From contig CAJVYT010000296.1 in assembly GCA_913009765.1 (NCBI GenBank), forward strand, positions 1 through 5,554: DNA of 5,554 bases, read 5' to 3'. A program made the position numbers and the translations under genes. Of this stretch, positions 811 through 5,554 are shown in pieces. The notes below the pieces were generated by a model. It worked only from the letters and a program-made list of their open reading frames with translations, was not told the DNA's origin and searched no databases. Positions within the stretch are counted from its first letter, which is position 1. Each line of letters starts with the position of its first letter. The stretch is from an uncultured candidate division Zixibacteria bacterium. Its GTDB lineage: Bacteria; Zixibacteria; MSB-5A5; GN15; FEB-12.

Positions 811-1188
811 TTAGAGAAAAACCTTATATTCAGTCCGTAAAGCCTTGGCCAAACGCTTTGCCATTTCTTTACCAATAGTGCGCTTGCCGTTCTCCATTTC
901 AGAAATATGGCTTGGCTTGACCCCTATCATTTCCGCAAGCTGTTTTTGCGTCAGTCCTTCACGGGAACGGAGCCCGCGCAACGCATGACCTATATGGAAC
1001 TCAGGGAAAACCTCCTCAATGGAATATAACCTGGAATCGTCTTCTTCCATCTTTTGGAGATGCATTCCTGCCAGATTAAGGATTTTCTCAATGGCGTCCT
1101 TTACCAACTCTCCCTTGTCAGAGGGTACTCCGCGTAAGTGAATTTCAACATATTCGTCCGTAGTCTGCGTTTTCGTGAGTTCCAACAT
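811..1188 (-). CDS. XRE-family antitoxin (HigA-like) of a type II TA pair
   Basis: The predicted protein of 125 residues would neutralise the upstream-encoded toxin and repress the operon. Residues 1-65 are acidic and variable, and are the likely toxin-contacting region. Residues about 70-119 form a helix-turn-helix of the Cro/XRE type, with LTQKQLAEMIGV as helices 2 and turn, and SHISEMENGKRTI as the recognition helix and following turn. The ATG at 1188 was chosen over one 15 nt upstream because GGAGGTG sits 6 nt before it. That Shine-Dalgarno falls inside the toxin coding sequence. The gene overlaps the toxin 3' end by 44 nt, which indicates one transcript and probably coupled translation. 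The toxin-before-antitoxin order is that of higBA. HTH membership is clear from the sequence; the antitoxin role rests on the neighbour. Confidence 0.9.
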   Translation of the reverse strand: MLELTKTQTTDEYVEIHLRGVPSDKGELVKDAIEKILNLAGMHLQKMEEDDSRLYSIEEVFPEFHIGHALRGLRSREGLTQKQLAEMIGVKPSHISEMENGKRTIGKEMAKRLAKALRTEYKVFL

Positions 1189-1441
1189 ATCGCACCTCCA
1201 CAAGCTTATTCTCCTTATCCGTTACCTTCCAAACGGCAACATAGGTTGGTTTGCCCTTTTTCAGGTGGCAATGGTGACAATCCCTCTTGCCTCTTATTTT
1301 GCCATAGTTAGGCCAAGTGGTTCTCGTAGGCCCAAGTTTTTTGATTTCCAGAACCAGAGCAAAAAGACTCTCTTGAACTTCAATGGGAAGATCTCCAGCC
1401 TGTTTTTTAGCCCTGTTTCTAAATTTTACGTTCCAGAACAT
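1145..1441 (-). CDS. RelE/HigB-like mRNA-interferase toxin
   Basis: This is a 98-residue basic protein of the RelE/ParE superfamily, the usual length for the family. Such toxins cut mRNA, often in the ribosomal A site, and are held inactive by their antitoxin. The N-terminal beta strand WNVKF, the helix NRAKKQAGDLPIEVQESLF (residues 9-27) and the C-terminal sheet with HCHLKKGKPTYVAVWKV (57-73) and YVGTHENADY (85-94) follow the pattern of 'cytotoxic translational repressor' proteins. The basic and aromatic residues H57, H59, K61, K62 and Y94 are candidate catalytic residues by analogy, not by demonstration. No Shine-Dalgarno precedes the ATG at 1441, and a possible promoter lies so close that the mRNA may be leaderless. 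The gene is first of a two-gene operon and overlaps the antitoxin. A ParE-type gyrase inhibitor is a less likely alternative. Confidence 0.88.
   Translation of the reverse strand: MFWNVKFRNRAKKQAGDLPIEVQESLFALVLEIKKLGPTRTTWPNYGKIRGKRDCHHCHLKKGKPTYVAVWKVTDKENKLVEVRYVGTHENADYGRIC
1193..1199 (-). promoter_or_regulatory. Shine-Dalgarno of the antitoxin gene
   Basis: On the minus strand, GGAGGTG lies 6 nt before the ATG at 1188 and fixes the antitoxin start. It is the strongest ribosome binding site in the TA operon. The toxin gene has none, which would favour antitoxin synthesis over toxin. Confidence 0.8.
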
Positions 1442-1475: not shown

Positions 1476-1556
1476 GCAAAAGCTATGTAAATAAATATCG
1501 GTTGGCCATAAGAAAGTCAAATAAAAACAGTTAGATATAAAATTCTCTTCCTCAAA

Positions 1557-1579
1557 TGTCGCATTATATGTCTGCCATT
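1557..1579 (+). repeat. Candidate left terminal repeat of the element
   Basis: Two similarities overlap here. TGTCGCATTATATGT (1557-1571) matches the arms of the 1642-1691 inverted repeat at 13 of 15 positions, and CATTC follows in both after a one-base gap. TATGTCTGCCATT (1567-1579) is an imperfect inverted copy of 4100-4112 at the right end. A transposase or accessory-protein binding site is the natural reading. Which base is the true terminus cannot be decided from one copy. Confidence 0.45.
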
Positions 1580-1630
1580 CTCCTTAAATTTTAAGAAAAT
1601 CCATTAAAAATCTTTATAAATCAGGGGGTT

Positions 1631-1658
1631 TTGCTTCCGATCTGTCGTAATATATGTT
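1631..1658 (+). promoter_or_regulatory. Weak candidate promoter of orfA-orfB
   Basis: TTGCTT (1631-1636) and TATGTT (1653-1658) are separated by 16 nt, with 3 and 4 of 6 matches to sigma-70 hexamers. The -10 lies inside the left arm of the inverted repeat, so a protein bound to the repeat would block it. If transcription begins just after it, the mRNA carries only the right arm and no hairpin, whereas read-through transcripts from outside carry both. This is a weak match and tentative. Confidence 0.25.
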
Positions 1659-1691
1659 ATCATTCCACATTCAAAACATATATTACGACAG
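1642..1691. repeat. 17-bp perfect inverted repeat (operator and/or RBS-masking hairpin) before orfA
   Basis: The arm CTGTCGTAATATATGTT (1642-1658) is repeated exactly in inverse orientation at 1675-1691, with a 16-nt spacer (1659-1674). The right arm ends on the first bases of the orfA Shine-Dalgarno (AGGAGG, 1690-1695). In RNA the stem would place the ribosome binding site at the base of a long hairpin; in DNA it is a dyad suited to a dimeric HTH protein. It has no T-tract and is not a terminator. A related third copy lies at 1557-1571. Confidence 0.85.
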
Positions 1692-1695
1692 GAGG
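1690..1695 (+). promoter_or_regulatory. Shine-Dalgarno of orfA, abutting the hairpin
   Basis: AGGAGG is 5 nt before the ATG at 1701, which is a near-ideal site. Its first two bases belong to the right arm of the inverted repeat, so its accessibility would depend on whether the upstream arm is transcribed and folded. Confidence 0.8.
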
Positions 1696-1700
1696 GAGCT

Positions 1701-2342
1701 ATGAAATCGAACTCTTTAGAAAAAATGTTTAATAAATCTAAAGTGTTAACCTTGAGTCAGGTTTCCAAAACACATGGTTGCTCAATTAGAACAGTTCAAC
1801 GTCAATTTGCTGAGTTAGCTGTATTAAGAAGCTACAATAAAAATAGTCGGTATTACACACTGCCCGCAATACCCAAATTTGATGTTCATGGAATTTGGCC
1901 CTATCGAAATATTCTTTTTTCAAAATATGGAAACCTTAGACAAACAGTGAAACACATGATCCTTGCCTCAGAAGATGGACTGAGCGGGAATGAGATAGGC
2001 GCCGTTGTGAACTTACTACCCCGATCATTCATGCACCACTTTCGAGATGTGGGAGGTATTTTTCGTGAAAAGCACGGCGGCGTTTATATCTATTTTTCCA
2101 ATGACCCCACAATATATGCAAGGCAAATAATCAAAAGAGTTCAGGCAGACGATGTAAAAAGAATCAGCGATGCCATAGCCATCAAAATATTGGTTGTTTA
2201 CATCAAGCATCCGGAATTATCTGAAGAGGAGTTATCTTCTATTTTAAGGCGTGAACAAAACGTTAATATTTCTCCGTCCATGATTACAAACTTGCTTTCT
2301 TTTCATGGTCTTTTAAAAAAAACTCCAGATTCTCGGCGATAA
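1701..2342 (+). CDS. orfA: multi-HTH accessory protein / N-terminal part of the transposase
   Basis: The protein has 213 residues and I recognise no named family. Three helix-turn-helix-like segments are visible: residues about 17-38 (LTLSQVSKTHGCSIRTVQRQF), about 93-115 (GLSGNEIGAVVNLLPRSFMHHF, followed by wing-like GGVYIYF) and about 173-207 (LSEEELSSILRREQ to SPSMITNLLSFHGLLKK). This indicates a DNA-binding protein, plausibly recognising the TGTCG(C/T)A(A/T)TATATGT sites upstream. The ATG at 1701 is fixed by AGGAGG 5 nt earlier. The last codons run through a slippery A8 tract (2315-2322) with the orfB frame open beneath, so orfA may be the zero-frame product of an orfA-orfB fusion, as in IS1- and IS3-type elements. 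As a stand-alone product it would probably act as a repressor or transposition regulator. The gene is AT-rich compared with the flanking chromosomal genes. Confidence 0.8.
   Translation: MKSNSLEKMFNKSKVLTLSQVSKTHGCSIRTVQRQFAELAVLRSYNKNSRYYTLPAIPKFDVHGIWPYRNILFSKYGNLRQTVKHMILASEDGLSGNEIGAVVNLLPRSFMHHFRDVGGIFREKHGGVYIYFSNDPTIYARQIIKRVQADDVKRISDAIAIKILVVYIKHPELSEEELSSILRREQNVNISPSMITNLLSFHGLLKKTPDSRR
2312..2322 (+). promoter_or_regulatory. Candidate -1 programmed frameshift site (T TTA AAA / A AAA AAA)
   Basis: In the orfA frame the codons are TTA (2313-2315), AAA (2316-2318) and AAA (2319-2321). This gives T TTA AAA at 2312-2318 and A AAA AAA at 2315-2321, both in the X XXY YYZ phase. A -1 slip enters the orfB frame, which is open from 2267 (after a TAA at 2264-2266) to 4084. 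After the second slip site the new codons begin at 2321 and read NSRFSAIKVLSDLRKKQTEE before orfB Met1. No downstream pseudoknot or upstream stimulatory Shine-Dalgarno is obvious. Transcriptional slippage on the A8 run is an alternative mechanism. Confidence 0.6.
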
Positions 2343-2380
2343 AGGTTCTTTCTGATTTACGAAAAAAGCAAACTGAGGAA

Positions 2381-4087
2381 ATGAGTGCAAAGACACTGTT
2401 CCCGGAGATCTCGAAATTTTTATTCTATCCTGAAATAAAATTCTGTACTCAATGTAACATCAGGTTAAATGTATTAAAGACAGGGGAGAGGACCGTTATC
2501 ACAATGAATACCGGACCTTTTATTGCCCATGAGACCTTTTTATACTGCCCCCAACACGGAGAAATCCATCGTTCGGAGGATTTAAAACGCTTGGTTCCGT
2601 TTAAAGGCACCTACGGGTATGATGTGCTGGTGCATGTCGGAAAAGCTACGTATCTTCGCTCTATGAACGACCAGGCGATCAAGAAAGAGCTGGAGTTGAA
2701 GGCCATCAACATATCTGAAAGTGAAATCCGCTATCTTGGACAAAAATTCATAGCGTACCTAACCATCTGTCATCAGCAGAGCCAGTTGAAACTCAGGCTG
2801 AAGATGGCCCTAAATGGTGGTTACATCCTTCATATTGATGGAACCTGCGAAGGGGATAGCCCTCATTTGTTTACGGGTATGGATGAAATCAGCGGGATTA
2901 TCCTTTCAAGCGTGAAAATCAATTCAGAAAAGAAGGAAAAGATCATTCCTTTTTTAAAAGATATCCAAGCAAAATATGGCACCCCTTTAGCAGTTGTTAG
3001 TGATATGGGAAAAGGATTGATAGGGGCTGTTGAGGAAGTATTCCCCGGAGTACTTTTTTTGATATGTCATTTCCATTTTCTTAGAGATCTCGGAAAAGAC
3101 CTCCTTGATGATAAGTATCGGGATCTTCGCAATCGTTTAACAAAGAGCAAAATACGAGTGGCTTTGAAAAACAAGGCAAAGGATTTTGAAAAGAAGCTTG
3201 GAAAAGAGATTAAAGACCTGTCAAAGATCGACGCCAATCCGGAACTAGCATCCATAAAAACAGCACTGTTGTTTATTCACTGCATATTCGATACTTCTTC
3301 GCTATCTGGCTATGGCTTCCCTTTTGATATGAAACATTCTCTATTCTATCATCGACTTATAGCCGGCTACGAGAAAATAGAACGGCTATATAACACAAAA
3401 GGGGGTAAGCCTTTTTACCAATTGATAAAGATTTTGAGCCGTGTTATCAACGATAAGGATTTGAAACAAACGGCTTCATTTTTGGAAGAAAATGAAACCA
3501 TTTTCAATGAACTAAGAGAAGCACTTCGGATCACGTTGAAAGATGGTAAACAGGGGTTAAACGACGCTGGTGAAGATTGTGATATGAAATCCATTTCCAA
3601 TAAGGTAGATGAATTTATTGATAAGTATAAATCGTCAGAAAATAAATACCATCAGAAAATGATTGAGCAGATCAAAAAATATTATGAGAAGCTGTTTGCA
3701 GATCCAATTAAAGTCATGGTAGATGGAAAGGAGATCTTGATTCAACCCCAACGAACGAATAATGTGATGGAGCAATTTTTTAGATATTTGAAAAGATTAT
3801 TACGAAAAAGAAGTGGCAACATCTCAGTAAAAAGATCCTTAACTGCAATGTTACCCGGCACTGTATTGGTCAAAAATCTTGATAACGAAGACTATCTTGA
3901 GTTGCTGCTTGATGGGACCAGCGGTTTGGAAGAGAGGTTCTCACAAATTGATAGTCGTTTATTCTTACAAGAGTTTTCAGAAATGAAATCACATAATAGG
4001 AAAATTCCAGCGGATGCAAAAAAACTGATAAAAGAAGATCAAGCGCTGGATAAAATTGAAAAACTCTTTTTGGCAGCTGCAATTTAG
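2381..4087 (+). CDS. orfB: MULE-like DDE transposase (D-D-C(2)H-E)
   Basis: This 568-residue transposase would cut and join the element ends in an RNase H-fold active site. Numbering from the first ATG, a probable zinc finger is formed by C22-x2-C25 and C56-x2-H59. The catalytic residues are D153 (HIDGT), D208 (VSDMGKG), the C229-x2-H232 motif (CHFHFLRDLGKD) typical of MULE/IS256-type enzymes, and E464 (NNVMEQFFRYLKRLLRKRSGN). About 230 residues, largely helical and charged, separate the second D and E, as expected for an insertion domain. All key residues are present, so the enzyme looks intact. The ATG at 2381 is poorly served: GAGG lies only 2 nt upstream, and the frame is open and protein-like back to 2267. 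Production by -1 frameshift from orfA (fusion of about 795 residues: 207 from orfA plus 588) is therefore plausible. Transposase identity comes from motif pattern only, and the exact IS family is unknown. Confidence 0.88.
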   Translation: MSAKTLFPEISKFLFYPEIKFCTQCNIRLNVLKTGERTVITMNTGPFIAHETFLYCPQHGEIHRSEDLKRLVPFKGTYGYDVLVHVGKATYLRSMNDQAIKKELELKAINISESEIRYLGQKFIAYLTICHQQSQLKLRLKMALNGGYILHIDGTCEGDSPHLFTGMDEISGIILSSVKINSEKKEKIIPFLKDIQAKYGTPLAVVSDMGKGLIGAVEEVFPGVLFLICHFHFLRDLGKDLLDDKYRDLRNRLTKSKIRVALKNKAKDFEKKLGKEIKDLSKIDANPELASIKTALLFIHCIFDTSSLSGYGFPFDMKHSLFYHRLIAGYEKIERLYNTKGGKPFYQLIKILSRVINDKDLKQTASFLEENETIFNELREALRITLKDGKQGLNDAGEDCDMKSISNKVDEFIDKYKSSENKYHQKMIEQIKKYYEKLFADPIKVMVDGKEILIQPQRTNNVMEQFFRYLKRLLRKRSGNISVKRSLTAMLPGTVLVKNLDNEDYLELLLDGTSGLEERFSQIDSRLFLQEFSEMKSHNRKIPADAKKLIKEDQALDKIEKLFLAAAI

Positions 4088-4095
4088 TTGCCAAC

Positions 4096-4115
4096 CGCTA
4101 TTTGCGGACATAGCG
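4096..4115. repeat. Right end of the element: terminal repeat and small dyad
   Basis: The reverse complement of 4100-4112 is the partner of the left repeat at 1567-1579 (10 of 13). Overlapping it is a dyad CGCTAT (4096-4101) / ATAGCG (4110-4115) with an 8-nt loop, and a nested CCGC-TATTT-GCGG (4095-4107). The transposase stop is only 26 nt from the methylase-like resumption point, so these bases must carry the transposase recognition end. The stems are short and lack a T-run, so they are unlikely to form a terminator. Confidence 0.5.
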
Positions 4116-4773
4116 CACACCTGATGAATTGACCGGCAATGTGGACATGGGTCGGGGACTCGATCATTTCACACGGGGAATTTCCGCTGTATTTCAAAAA
4201 ATGTCGAAGGCACTAAAAACTGGCGCCCCCCTGGCATTCACTTATCATCACAATACAATCGAAGCGTATTACCCGGTGGCGGTGGCGGTCCTTGATGGCG
4301 GTCTGACCTGTTCTGCATCGCTTCCTTGTCCTGCCGAAATGGGCGCATCCATTCATATCAATGGGACCGGATCATCCATAATCGATACCATTTTTGTTTG
4401 CCGGACAACAGGCGTCATGCAGCGAAAATGGATAGCGGATTCGCCACATGAACTTGCCAGAATTGTAGAAAAAGACTTAAACCATCTCAAGGCCGGAAAT
4501 GTCAAACCGACTCGTGGTGGCATCAGATGTATTACCTATGGGCATCTAATCCGGTTGGCGATCTGGTCCTTGCGGCTTAACTGGAATAAGAACAAACCAA
4601 CAACATCACGTATCGCAAAAGTGGCAGATTGGCTCCAACGCTTTGGTGGATGGGCCGAAGTCGAGAAATGCATGGAGGGCGTTAAAAGAGAAACGACAAA
4701 GGATATGCCGTTGTTTTCTGTGCATGAGAGCGATGCAAATTATGGAGATGAATATGCTGACGTTCCCTTTTGA
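4114..4773 (+). pseudogene. C-terminal remnant of a DUF1156/COG1743-type adenine DNA methylase
   Basis: The remnant has 219 codons, in frame from CGC at 4114 just after TAG, reading RTPDELTGN and then GRGLDHFTRGISAVFQKMSKALKTGAPLAFTYHH. This matches my recollection of the C-terminal catalytic half and tail of DUF1156 'adenine-specific methylase containing a Zn-ribbon' proteins, including SLPCPAEMGASIHINGTGSS, IDTIFVCRTTG, ITYGHLIRLAIWSLRLNWNK and the ending YGDEYADVPF. Family members are usually about 900 residues, so roughly three quarters are missing, including the [DN]PPY motif that should lie just upstream of RTPDELTGN. No ribosome binding site serves the TTG at 4129 or the ATG at 4147. 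The 5' part is absent from the other side of the element. The remnant is non-functional as it stands, unless the junction is an assembly artefact. It would have protected or marked DNA by N6-adenine methylation in a restriction or defence locus. Confidence 0.75.
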
Positions 4774-5462
4774 AGTTTCCTTGGAGGAGATTCTCCGGGA
4801 TCCGGAAAGCTATGTTGATTCTGTATTTTCATGCCTCGAATCGGAATTCCTCGTTATGCCCAAAGGGGCAGGATTTGTGGAATATCCTGTTTTCGAACGT
4901 GGCTACGAAGCATTGAAAGCAGCTACAGATGGATTTTCCATTCTTGATCCCGACAAGGTTTACCCTGTGACGGTTTCCGAGCCGATTTCGATTGTGGTTC
5001 TGCGAACCATGCTTGGTTTTACACCTCCGGAGTGGGGCTATGTCACTATGCAAAGAACCGGAGTGCAGGTTACCCAAAGCTTTGTGCGTTCCCTGGATCG
5101 GAAAGTGCGAATGAGGCCTGAAACGGAACTCAATACAAACGGAGTTACCAAGGAACGACTTGAGGCGATGGTTCAAACCGCGTGTCAATTGCTATCTGCC
5201 GGTGCTCCCGAAGTAGACATTGATCAATTGCATCGGTTGAACAAAGCCGATACAAAACAGGGTGTTTCCAGCATCAAGAATCTATCTCAAATAGGGGCTC
5301 CCTATGCCATGCTGTTGTATGAACGGTTGCTTGGAAGGCCTTTTGCCGGGCATCGTGACTCCGTTAGCGAGATTATTGGTGACAGCTTGGAGTCAGCGAT
5401 CGAGGATGTTCTCACCAAAGCGGGTGTCAGTTTCCGTAAAACCAAACGAGCGGAACGAATCG
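4754..5462 (+). CDS. Methylase-linked protein, possible restriction endonuclease; 3'-truncated
   Basis: The genuine sequence comprises 236 codons, ending at 5461. The ATG at 4754 was chosen because GGAG (4744-4747) lies 6 nt before it; the frame runs open to an ATG at 4643, but that part is methylase coding in another frame. The start overlaps the methylase stop by 20 nt, which implies co-transcription and coupling. The protein is soluble, with no signal peptide or membrane segment. The segment HRDSVSEIIGDSLESAIEDVLTKAGVSF (about residues 199-226) looks like the leading E..E helix of a PD-(D/E)xK nuclease, and the protein vaguely recalls XamI-type restriction enzymes. The D and ExK strands would lie beyond the contig, so a nuclease role is inference from position and this fragment. 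An apparent continuation [11 protein letters not shown] to 5497 is translated adapter, not protein. Confidence 0.65.
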
Positions 5463-5520
5463 AGATCGGAAGAGCGTCGTGTAGGGAAAGAGTGTAGATC
5501 TCGGTGGTCGCCGTATCATT
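5463..5520 (-). other. Reverse-complement Illumina P5 adapter (artefact)
   Basis: The block begins AGATCGGAAGAGCGTCGTG and continues through the full P5 end, finishing GCCGTATCATT. It is the same adapter as at 1-34 in the opposite orientation. It truncates the last gene and creates false reading frames on both strands with the well-known artefact peptides GRASCRERV and [17 protein letters not shown]. Confidence 0.98.
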
Positions 5521-5554
5521 AAAAAAAAAAAACACAAGCATCGAGAGTTGATCC
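5521..5554. other. Poly-A read-through and unexplained tail (artefact)
   Basis: Twelve A residues (5521-5532) directly follow the outer end of the P5 adapter, as seen when a read runs off a short library molecule. The last 22 bases (5533-5554) follow no genomic sequence in the window and should be trimmed with it. I do not recognise their origin. Confidence 0.85.

What the first reader, a model, noticed from the sequence alone, without database searches (positions are those of the whole stretch)
2267..2400. orfA and orfB look like one transposase split by a programmed -1 frameshift
Seen directly: the orfB frame is open from 2267, 76 nt before the orfA stop. Two overlapping heptamers (T TTA AAA at 2312-2318, A AAA AAA at 2315-2321) are in the phase needed for -1 slippage into it. 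The 20 codons from 2321 to the orfB ATG read as plausible protein (AIKVLSDLRKKQTEE), and orfB's Shine-Dalgarno is only 2 nt from its ATG. Known: IS1, IS3 and other families make transposase by -1 shifting on A6-A7 motifs. Inferred: a fusion of about 795 residues joining three HTH modules to a D-D-C(2)H-E core, which would be an unusual architecture for a MULE-like transposase. The Illumina adapters suggest short-read data, which makes a length error in an A8 run less likely.
Basis: partly seen in the sequence, partly recalled or inferred. Interest (0 to 1): 0.72.

Follow-up and report, generated by a model that had tools for sequence, protein, structure and literature searches.

The report
Slippage-fused transposase of undescribed insertion sequence
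This is a mobile DNA element whose two transposase genes are probably joined into one protein when the cell's machinery slips on a run of A's; relatives keep that run even where the direction of the needed slip differs, which points to slipping during transcription rather than during translation.

Summary
The window holds a 2,631-bp insertion sequence (1483-4113) with OrfA (three predicted helix-turn-helix units) and OrfB (Mutator/IS256-related DDE transposase) in the -1 frame. All 68 non-redundant loci examined at the junction have an uninterrupted run of 8-10 A there; such runs occur 14 times in 164 kb elsewhere in these genes. The peptide after the run is conserved in the OrfB frame, often without a start codon, so an OrfA-OrfB fusion is strongly supported.

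T_TTA_AAA occurs in 12 of 68 loci; no stimulatory RNA structure or Shine-Dalgarno was found; and OrfB lies in the -1 frame in 59, +1 in 6 and in frame in 3 of 68 (two of those 3 are damaged copies) while the run persists. Varying direction is a published mark of transcriptional slippage, which I favour; ribosomal slippage may add to it. A dyad at the orfA start (50 of 66 loci) suggests that OrfA represses itself. I rate it a new variant of a known kind. No RNA or protein was tested.

The parts
1483..4113 (+). Insertion sequence, 2,631 bp
1483..1506 (+). Left terminal inverted repeat CTATGTAAATAAATATCGGTTGGC
   Evidence: ends of the same kind define five near-identical NaphS2 copies with 8-bp target duplications
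4090..4113 (-). Right terminal inverted repeat (reverse complement CTATGTCCGCAAATAGCGGTTGGC)
   Evidence: the alignment of L001 with the window ends at 4113
1642..1691 (.). Dyad, arms 1642-1658 and 1675-1691, next to the orfA Shine-Dalgarno; candidate operator
   Evidence: dyads above the 99th percentile of shuffles at the orfA start in 50 of 66 loci, in 0 of 68 control windows; shared half-site TGATAAAGTATATG, core word present in 39 of 50 arms
1701..2342 (+). orfA, 213 aa, DNA-binding part of the transposase and probable repressor
   Evidence: model pLDDT 89 with helix-turn-helix units at residues 3-38, 79-133 (winged) and 157-201
2267..4087 (+). Open frame of orfB (-1 relative to orfA)
2315..2322 (+). 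A8 slippage run (TTA AAA AAA ACT in the orfA frame)
   Evidence: 8-10 A at the same point in 68 of 68 non-redundant loci
2321..2380 (+). Trans-frame linker coding NSRFSAIKVLSDLRKKQTEE in the orfB frame
   Evidence: Similar peptides in relatives; third-position excess
2381..4087 (+). orfB from its first ATG, 568 aa, DDE transposase
   Evidence: Weak IS256/ISH6/MULE matches; fold match to ISCth4 transposase
2837..2839 (+). Codon of D153, probable first catalytic Asp
   Evidence: Invariant in 17 aligned OrfB
3002..3004 (+). Codon of D208, probable second catalytic Asp
   Evidence: Invariant in 17 aligned OrfB
3065..3076 (+). C229-x2-H232, the C(2)H motif
   Evidence: Invariant in 17 aligned OrfB
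3770..3772 (+). Codon of E464, probable catalytic Glu
   Evidence: Invariant in 17 aligned OrfB

Best explanation
The window carries an insertion sequence whose transposase is made as an OrfA-OrfB fusion through slippage on the A8 run at 2315-2322. In the main mechanism RNA polymerase adds or drops A's, giving a mixed mRNA pool: unchanged copies yield OrfA (DNA-binding, probably a repressor acting at the dyad 1642-1691), and copies with one extra A (or two fewer) yield the full transposase, about 795 residues. Ribosomal -1 slippage on A_AAA_AAA may add to it in -1 members such as this one. Shown by comparison: conserved run, conserved trans-frame peptide, differing frame direction, IS ends. 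Inferred: the slippage itself, its level, the fusion's activity, and OrfA's repressor role.
For: Run of 8-10 A in 68 of 68 non-redundant loci against 14 such runs in 164.0 kb of the same genes elsewhere; at the site no Lys codon is AAG although 38% of the other Lys codons are. OrfB frame -1 in 59, +1 in 6, 0 in 3 of 68; four +1 loci from four assemblies form a supported clade; L033, L036 and L040, 87-89% identical, are +1, 0 and -1, though L036 is a damaged copy. The three states need at least 6 changes on a tree of 65, and the +1 label at least 3 gains or losses. The frame-0 element L045 (A10) has both ends and an 8-bp target duplication. No ribosomal stimulators found. Linker conserved in the orfB frame, third positions 86 of 174 differences, p 8e-6. 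No ATG between run and OrfB core in 50 of 70, and no ATG/GTG/TTG in 13 of 70. Direction not conserved among orthologues is the criterion for transcriptional realignment in PMC3711429 (section read); [quoted passage not shown]
Against: No RNA or protein data. Most members are -1, the direction that ribosomal slippage serves, and a run of 8 or more always contains an in-phase slippery heptamer. The window's run is A8, shorter than the 9 A used as criterion in PMC1088944 (which nevertheless infers that slippage is productive on 8 A in Deinococcus and Nostoc). The absence of A7 is a weak argument, because in IS1447 seven A suffice for transcriptional slippage too (PMC6211511, abstract). Of the 3 frame-0 loci L036 has internal stops and L019 has a stop between the two ORFs, leaving L045 as the only clean one; the single +1 calls (L033, L077) and L045 could be homopolymer errors in assemblies. 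IS1447 has a stem-loop before its run; no enrichment of upstream structure was found here.
Confidence: 0.68

Rival explanations
1. Classical programmed -1 ribosomal frameshifting on A_AAA_AAA (IS1/IS3 type); the +1 and 0 members are side branches with another solution or sequencing errors.
For: An in-phase heptamer in the window and -1 frame in 59 of 68 loci. Heptamers without stimulator can still shift: 39 motifs (61%) gave 2.1- to 10-fold over the no-motif value in E. coli (PMC4066793, passages seen).
Against: No enrichment of downstream structure and no SD-like stimulator (0 of 68); A_AAA_AAG not used in the 68; the same run lies at a +1 junction in a supported four-member clade. Pseudoknots were not modelled.
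Confidence: 0.25
2. Two separate proteins, OrfA and OrfB, with OrfB started at ATG 2381 by translational coupling; the fusion is minor or absent.
For: GAGG two nt before ATG 2381; Met at this place in 13 of 14 aligned OrfB of 62% identity or more, the window included, Leu in P0057.
Against: Conserved coding in the orfB frame up to the run; no ATG in 50 of 70 and no ATG/GTG/TTG in 13 of 70 sequences between run and core; single-ORF relatives L045 and P0331.
Confidence: 0.05
3. Replication slippage (phase variation): the run length varies at the DNA level and only some copies encode the fusion.
For: Run lengths 8-10 with all three frame relations; of five near-identical NaphS2 copies four have A8 and one A7.
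Against: Split -1 copies dominate, and 120 of 120 listed OrfA end at the same place, which a freely switching run would not give.
Confidence: 0.08
4. Assembly or sequencing error in an A9 run; the real gene is one ORF.
For: Homopolymers are error-prone.
Against: Many independent assemblies show the same split.
Confidence: 0.01

Closest known systems
IS630, IS5-type (DDE_Tnp_1) and IS3 (IS1447) elements with transcriptional realignment (PMC3711429, PMC1088944, PMC6211511)
   Same: Two ORFs joined at a poly-A run; +1 and -1 clusters within one transposase family (PMC3711429) as here; IS1447 has A9 with +1 slippage giving the functional transposase (abstract)
   Different: Different transposase superfamily; IS1447's run follows a stem-loop, and no enrichment of upstream structure was found here. 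The equation of DDE_Tnp_1 with IS5 is mine
ISMich2 group, p-MULT 4 (Mutator superfamily; PMC3942029)
   Same: Mutator-related transposase in two ORFs with a -1 relation, taken there as probable translational frameshifting
   Different: No ISMich2 sequence was at hand. Distant Nostoc and Rhodovastum relatives (about 25% identity over OrfB 1-233) have annotated CDS lengths of 3n+1, and in Nostoc an A10 run lies at the frame change inside the catalytic domain, not before OrfB; calling these ISMich2-like would be a guess
IS256 and ISH6 families (p-MULT 1 and 2)
   Same: DDE with C(2)H, inverted repeats ending in C, 8-bp duplications, distant sequence match
   Different: Scores far below curated cut-offs (38.6 of 150; 26.8 of 240); separate 213-aa OrfA; 2.6-2.85 kb; longer D2-E interval
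IS1 and IS3 -1 ribosomal frameshifting
   Same: In-phase A-rich heptamer; regulator OrfA and transposase OrfAB (general scheme in PMC5009743)
   Different: No stimulators found, direction not conserved

Membership tests
[quoted passage not shown]
   D153, D208, C229-x2-H232 and E464 invariant in 17 sequences; roles inferred from position
[quoted passage not shown] helical insert of 99-138 aa between D2 and E (PMC3942029) | tested here: not met
   D208 to C229 is 21 positions and 255 residues lie between D208 and E464 (the insert itself was not delimited), so I call it Mutator-related, not a member of p-MULT 1-5
[quoted passage not shown]
   Repeats starting CTAT (required by the search) in 50 of 74; 8-bp duplication (7 of 8 or better) in 15 of 47 testable, five of them near-identical NaphS2 copies; the window's own flanks match 4 of 8 only
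IS256 family | Curated NCBIfam cut-off 150 bits | tested here: not met
   38.6 bits for the window; 15.2-34.7 bits in 8 relatives
ISH6 family | Curated NCBIfam cut-off 240 bits | tested here: not met
   26.8 bits
ISMich2 group | Transposase sequence in the ISMich2 clade | not testable with these tools
   No ISfinder sequences held; one paper in the library names the group
Programmed transcriptional realignment | Frame direction not conserved among orthologues | tested here: met
   -1 in 59, +1 in 6, 0 in 3 of 68; at least 6 changes on a tree of 65; two of the 3 frame-0 copies are damaged
Programmed transcriptional realignment | mRNA heterogeneous in run length | not testable with these tools
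   No RNA data
Programmed -1 ribosomal frameshifting | In-phase slippery heptamer | tested here: met
   A_AAA_AAA at 2315-2321
Programmed -1 ribosomal frameshifting | Stimulatory downstream structure or upstream SD | tested here: inconclusive
   No enrichment of structure and 0 of 68 SD-like, but pseudoknots were not modelled and single members may have a hairpin (5 of 68 with z below -2 downstream)
Programmed -1 ribosomal frameshifting | Same direction in orthologues | tested here: not met

The most novel reading that the evidence does not exclude
An undescribed, widely spread IS group in which a poly-A hub is under selection for length (8 or more) but not for frame: the same hub gives the fusion by -1, +1 or no shift, so the element measures out OrfA repressor against OrfAB transposase by RNA-polymerase slippage alone, with OrfA acting on a conserved dyad over its own start region. 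It would be direction-free transcriptional recoding in the Mutator superfamily.
Probability: 0.5. Interest if true: 0.62.

Novelty: new variant of a known kind. Interest (0 to 1): 0.5.

Why it matters
It adds a Mutator-related IS group to the elements that appear to need slippage to make transposase. Its relatives sit in genomes labelled with about 17 phyla (labels; mostly metagenome bins and short contigs, so hosts are uncertain), and many are listed as hypothetical proteins or unnamed. Sister clades that differ in the direction of the needed shift at one run are a natural experiment for separating polymerase from ribosome slippage. The conserved dyad gives a testable model of autoregulation.

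Tried and rejected
Sequencing error: rejected by homologues. T_TTA_AAA as the site: in 12 of 68 only. RNA stimulators: mean z downstream 60 nt -0.26 (136 control windows -0.11), downstream 100 nt -0.19, upstream 30 and 45 nt 0.01 and -0.05 (one search had shuffles but no control windows); pseudoknots untested. Dyad as RNA hairpin: mismatches are not biased to G.U (13 G.U-type and 11 A.C-type of 46 in 842 pairs), and Rfam gave only matches below the gathering scores, so a DNA operator is preferred; core spacing is not fixed, which is against a rigid operator. Viral contigs: 102 stretches matched a pattern, none encoded a relative. Sequence search of solved structures: none for OrfB, only weak hits for OrfA; a fold search with OrfA gave TFIIIC (TM 0.26) and mostly winged-helix proteins, no transposase among the 50 rows shown. 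Even sampling of two phyla found 2 of 395 and 3 of 392 genomes with a relative at E 1e-100, the centre genome counted in each, so it was not pursued. A mixed OrfA/OrfB/fusion alignment misplaced the OrfA rows and was not folded. An overlap of promoter and dyad was thought of but not tested.

One search printed 16 loci without any start codon; in three of these (L046, L058, L079) no anchor was found, and one search shows TTG or GTG codons but no ATG there, so I give 13 of 70 (no ATG stays 50 of 70). The 16 pairs were picked by me as related pairs of one frame type. The loci are related, so the codon-usage figure (1e-31) is not a true probability. The inverted-repeat search had no chance control; the target duplications are what supports the ends. 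The dyad threshold comes from base shuffles that do not keep dinucleotides; the 68 orfB windows are the second control.

Full report
What is there. The window's two ORFs lie in an insertion sequence at 1483-4113 with imperfect 24-bp ends (19 of 24 identical). Ends of the same kind (CTAT...GTTGG in most) were found in 50 of the 74 sequences examined, with element lengths of 2,631-2,852 bp, and 15 of 47 testable copies have an 8-bp target duplication, including all five near-identical copies of strain NaphS2. The window's own copy has none (4 of 8 bases match), so its flanks may have been rearranged.

The split is conserved. The protein searches found 4,503 OrfB hits among the 7,996 candidates scored and 289 OrfA hits; the best 120 of each are listed, and no listed OrfB hit is longer than 619 aa. 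The genome scan found 125 relatives and kept 80. OrfA is present before OrfB in 75 of these 80. Among the 74 sequences examined at the junction (73 loci and the window), run lengths are 8 in 47, 9 in 23, 10 in 3 and 7 in one (L003, whose sister copies have 8). After removal of near-copies 68 of 68 have 8-10 A. Elsewhere in the same genes there are 14 such runs in 164.0 kb, and 38% of the Lys codons are AAG.

The fusion is coded. After the run the orfB frame reads peptides of the type KKN-x-G-Y-x-A-(I/L)-K-x-L and reaches the OrfB core about 25-30 residues on, in most loci. In 16 related pairs, differences after the orfA stop fall on third positions of the orfB frame in 86 of 174 (p 8e-6), and in the overlap in 32 of 60 (no p computed), where for -1 members that position is the second codon position of orfA. 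So the orfB frame is what selection sees there. In 50 of 70 sequences there is no ATG between run and core, and in 13 of 70 no ATG, GTG or TTG; in 27 of 69 the orfB frame opens only within 15 nt upstream of the run or at it. Single-ORF relatives exist: L045 (828 codons, A10, with both ends and an 8-bp duplication) and protein P0331 (810 aa, junction GLIEKNVGF), the only full-length one among the best 120 of 1,461 hits to L045; P0244 (612 aa) is fused but ends early. L045's own closest listed relatives are OrfB-only proteins, so a single ORF is rare.

Which machine slips. OrfB is in the -1 frame in 59, +1 in 6 and 0 in 3 of 68 loci; two of the 3 frame-0 copies (L019, L036) are damaged. On a tree of 65 OrfB the three states need at least 6 changes and the +1 label at least 3 gains or losses; four +1 members from four assemblies form a supported clade. 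L033, L036 and L040 are 87-89% identical yet +1, 0 and -1. [quoted passage not shown] A heptamer alone would allow A7 or A_AAA_AAG; neither occurs in the 68, although in IS1447 seven A suffice for transcriptional slippage as well (abstract), so this point is weak. Stimulators typical of ribosomal sites were not found (0 of 68 SD-like, 6.1 expected; no enrichment of downstream structure). PMC1088944 (Results and Discussion read) reports IS elements with 9 A and related copies with 8 A in Deinococcus, and 8-10 A in Nostoc. Against this reading: most members are -1, every run contains a usable heptamer, and the window has only A8. I put transcriptional slippage as the main mechanism at about 0.68 and ribosomal slippage alone at about 0.25; both may act.

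A second conserved part. A dyad abuts the orfA ribosome-binding site in the window (1642-1658/1675-1691). The same search finds dyads above the 99th percentile of base shuffles at the orfA start in 50 of 66 loci and in 0 of 68 control windows from orfB. The half-site consensus is TGATAAAGTATATG, from the 39 of 50 arms that hold the core word, and mismatches are not biased to G.U. I read it as an operator for OrfA, which would make the OrfA:fusion ratio the control knob; this is inference.

Known or new. Slippage or frameshifting for transposase is known in IS1, IS3, IS5 and IS630 (PMC5009743), and a -1 relation was predicted for the Mutator-related ISMich2 group (PMC3942029, three sections read). 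[quoted passage not shown] Searches for transcriptional slippage with IS256, for Mutator with frameshift and for related terms listed no title or abstract on this group in the held open library; listings were capped, and subscription journals and ISfinder were not searched. For PMC6211511 I saw the outline and abstract, for PMC4066793 passages.

Noticed in passing
1642-1691, and the orfA start in 50 of 66 loci: Conserved dyad with half-site TGATAAAGTATATG next to the orfA start; core spacing, measured in 39, is 18-20 nt in 25 and 26-27 nt in 7.
   Followed up: partly
1482-1608; L009 2581-2707: The first 127 bp of the element's left end are 93% identical to L009, whose OrfB is only 43% identical to the window's. 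This looks like exchange of ends between distant elements of the group, or a recent recombination.
   Followed up: partly
1-34 and 5463-5496: Identical adapter-like sequence in inverted orientation at both ends, then an A12 tail near 5521-5532; the contig or read was not trimmed. The adapter's identity (Illumina) is recalled.
   Followed up: no
1475-1482 and 4114-4121: The flanks of the element share no target duplication (4 of 8), so the left and right neighbours may not have been adjacent before insertion.
   Followed up: partly
811-1441, minus strand: A small ORF of 98 aa followed by an HTH_3 protein, laid out like a toxin-antitoxin pair; only the HTH protein has a Pfam match above cut-off.
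   Followed up: partly
3-803: C-terminal part of a sigma-54 activator (Sigma54_activat, AAA_lid_14, HTH_8).
   Followed up: no
4129-5497: Two reading frames right of the element without a Pfam or PADLOC match and without an NCBIfam match above cut-off; from memory the first resembles a DUF1156-type methylase end, untested.
   Followed up: no
L081 3275-3284 (Nostoc plasmid): A distant relative (about 25% identity) has an A10 run at a frame change inside its catalytic domain, a possible slippage site at another place.
   Followed up: partly
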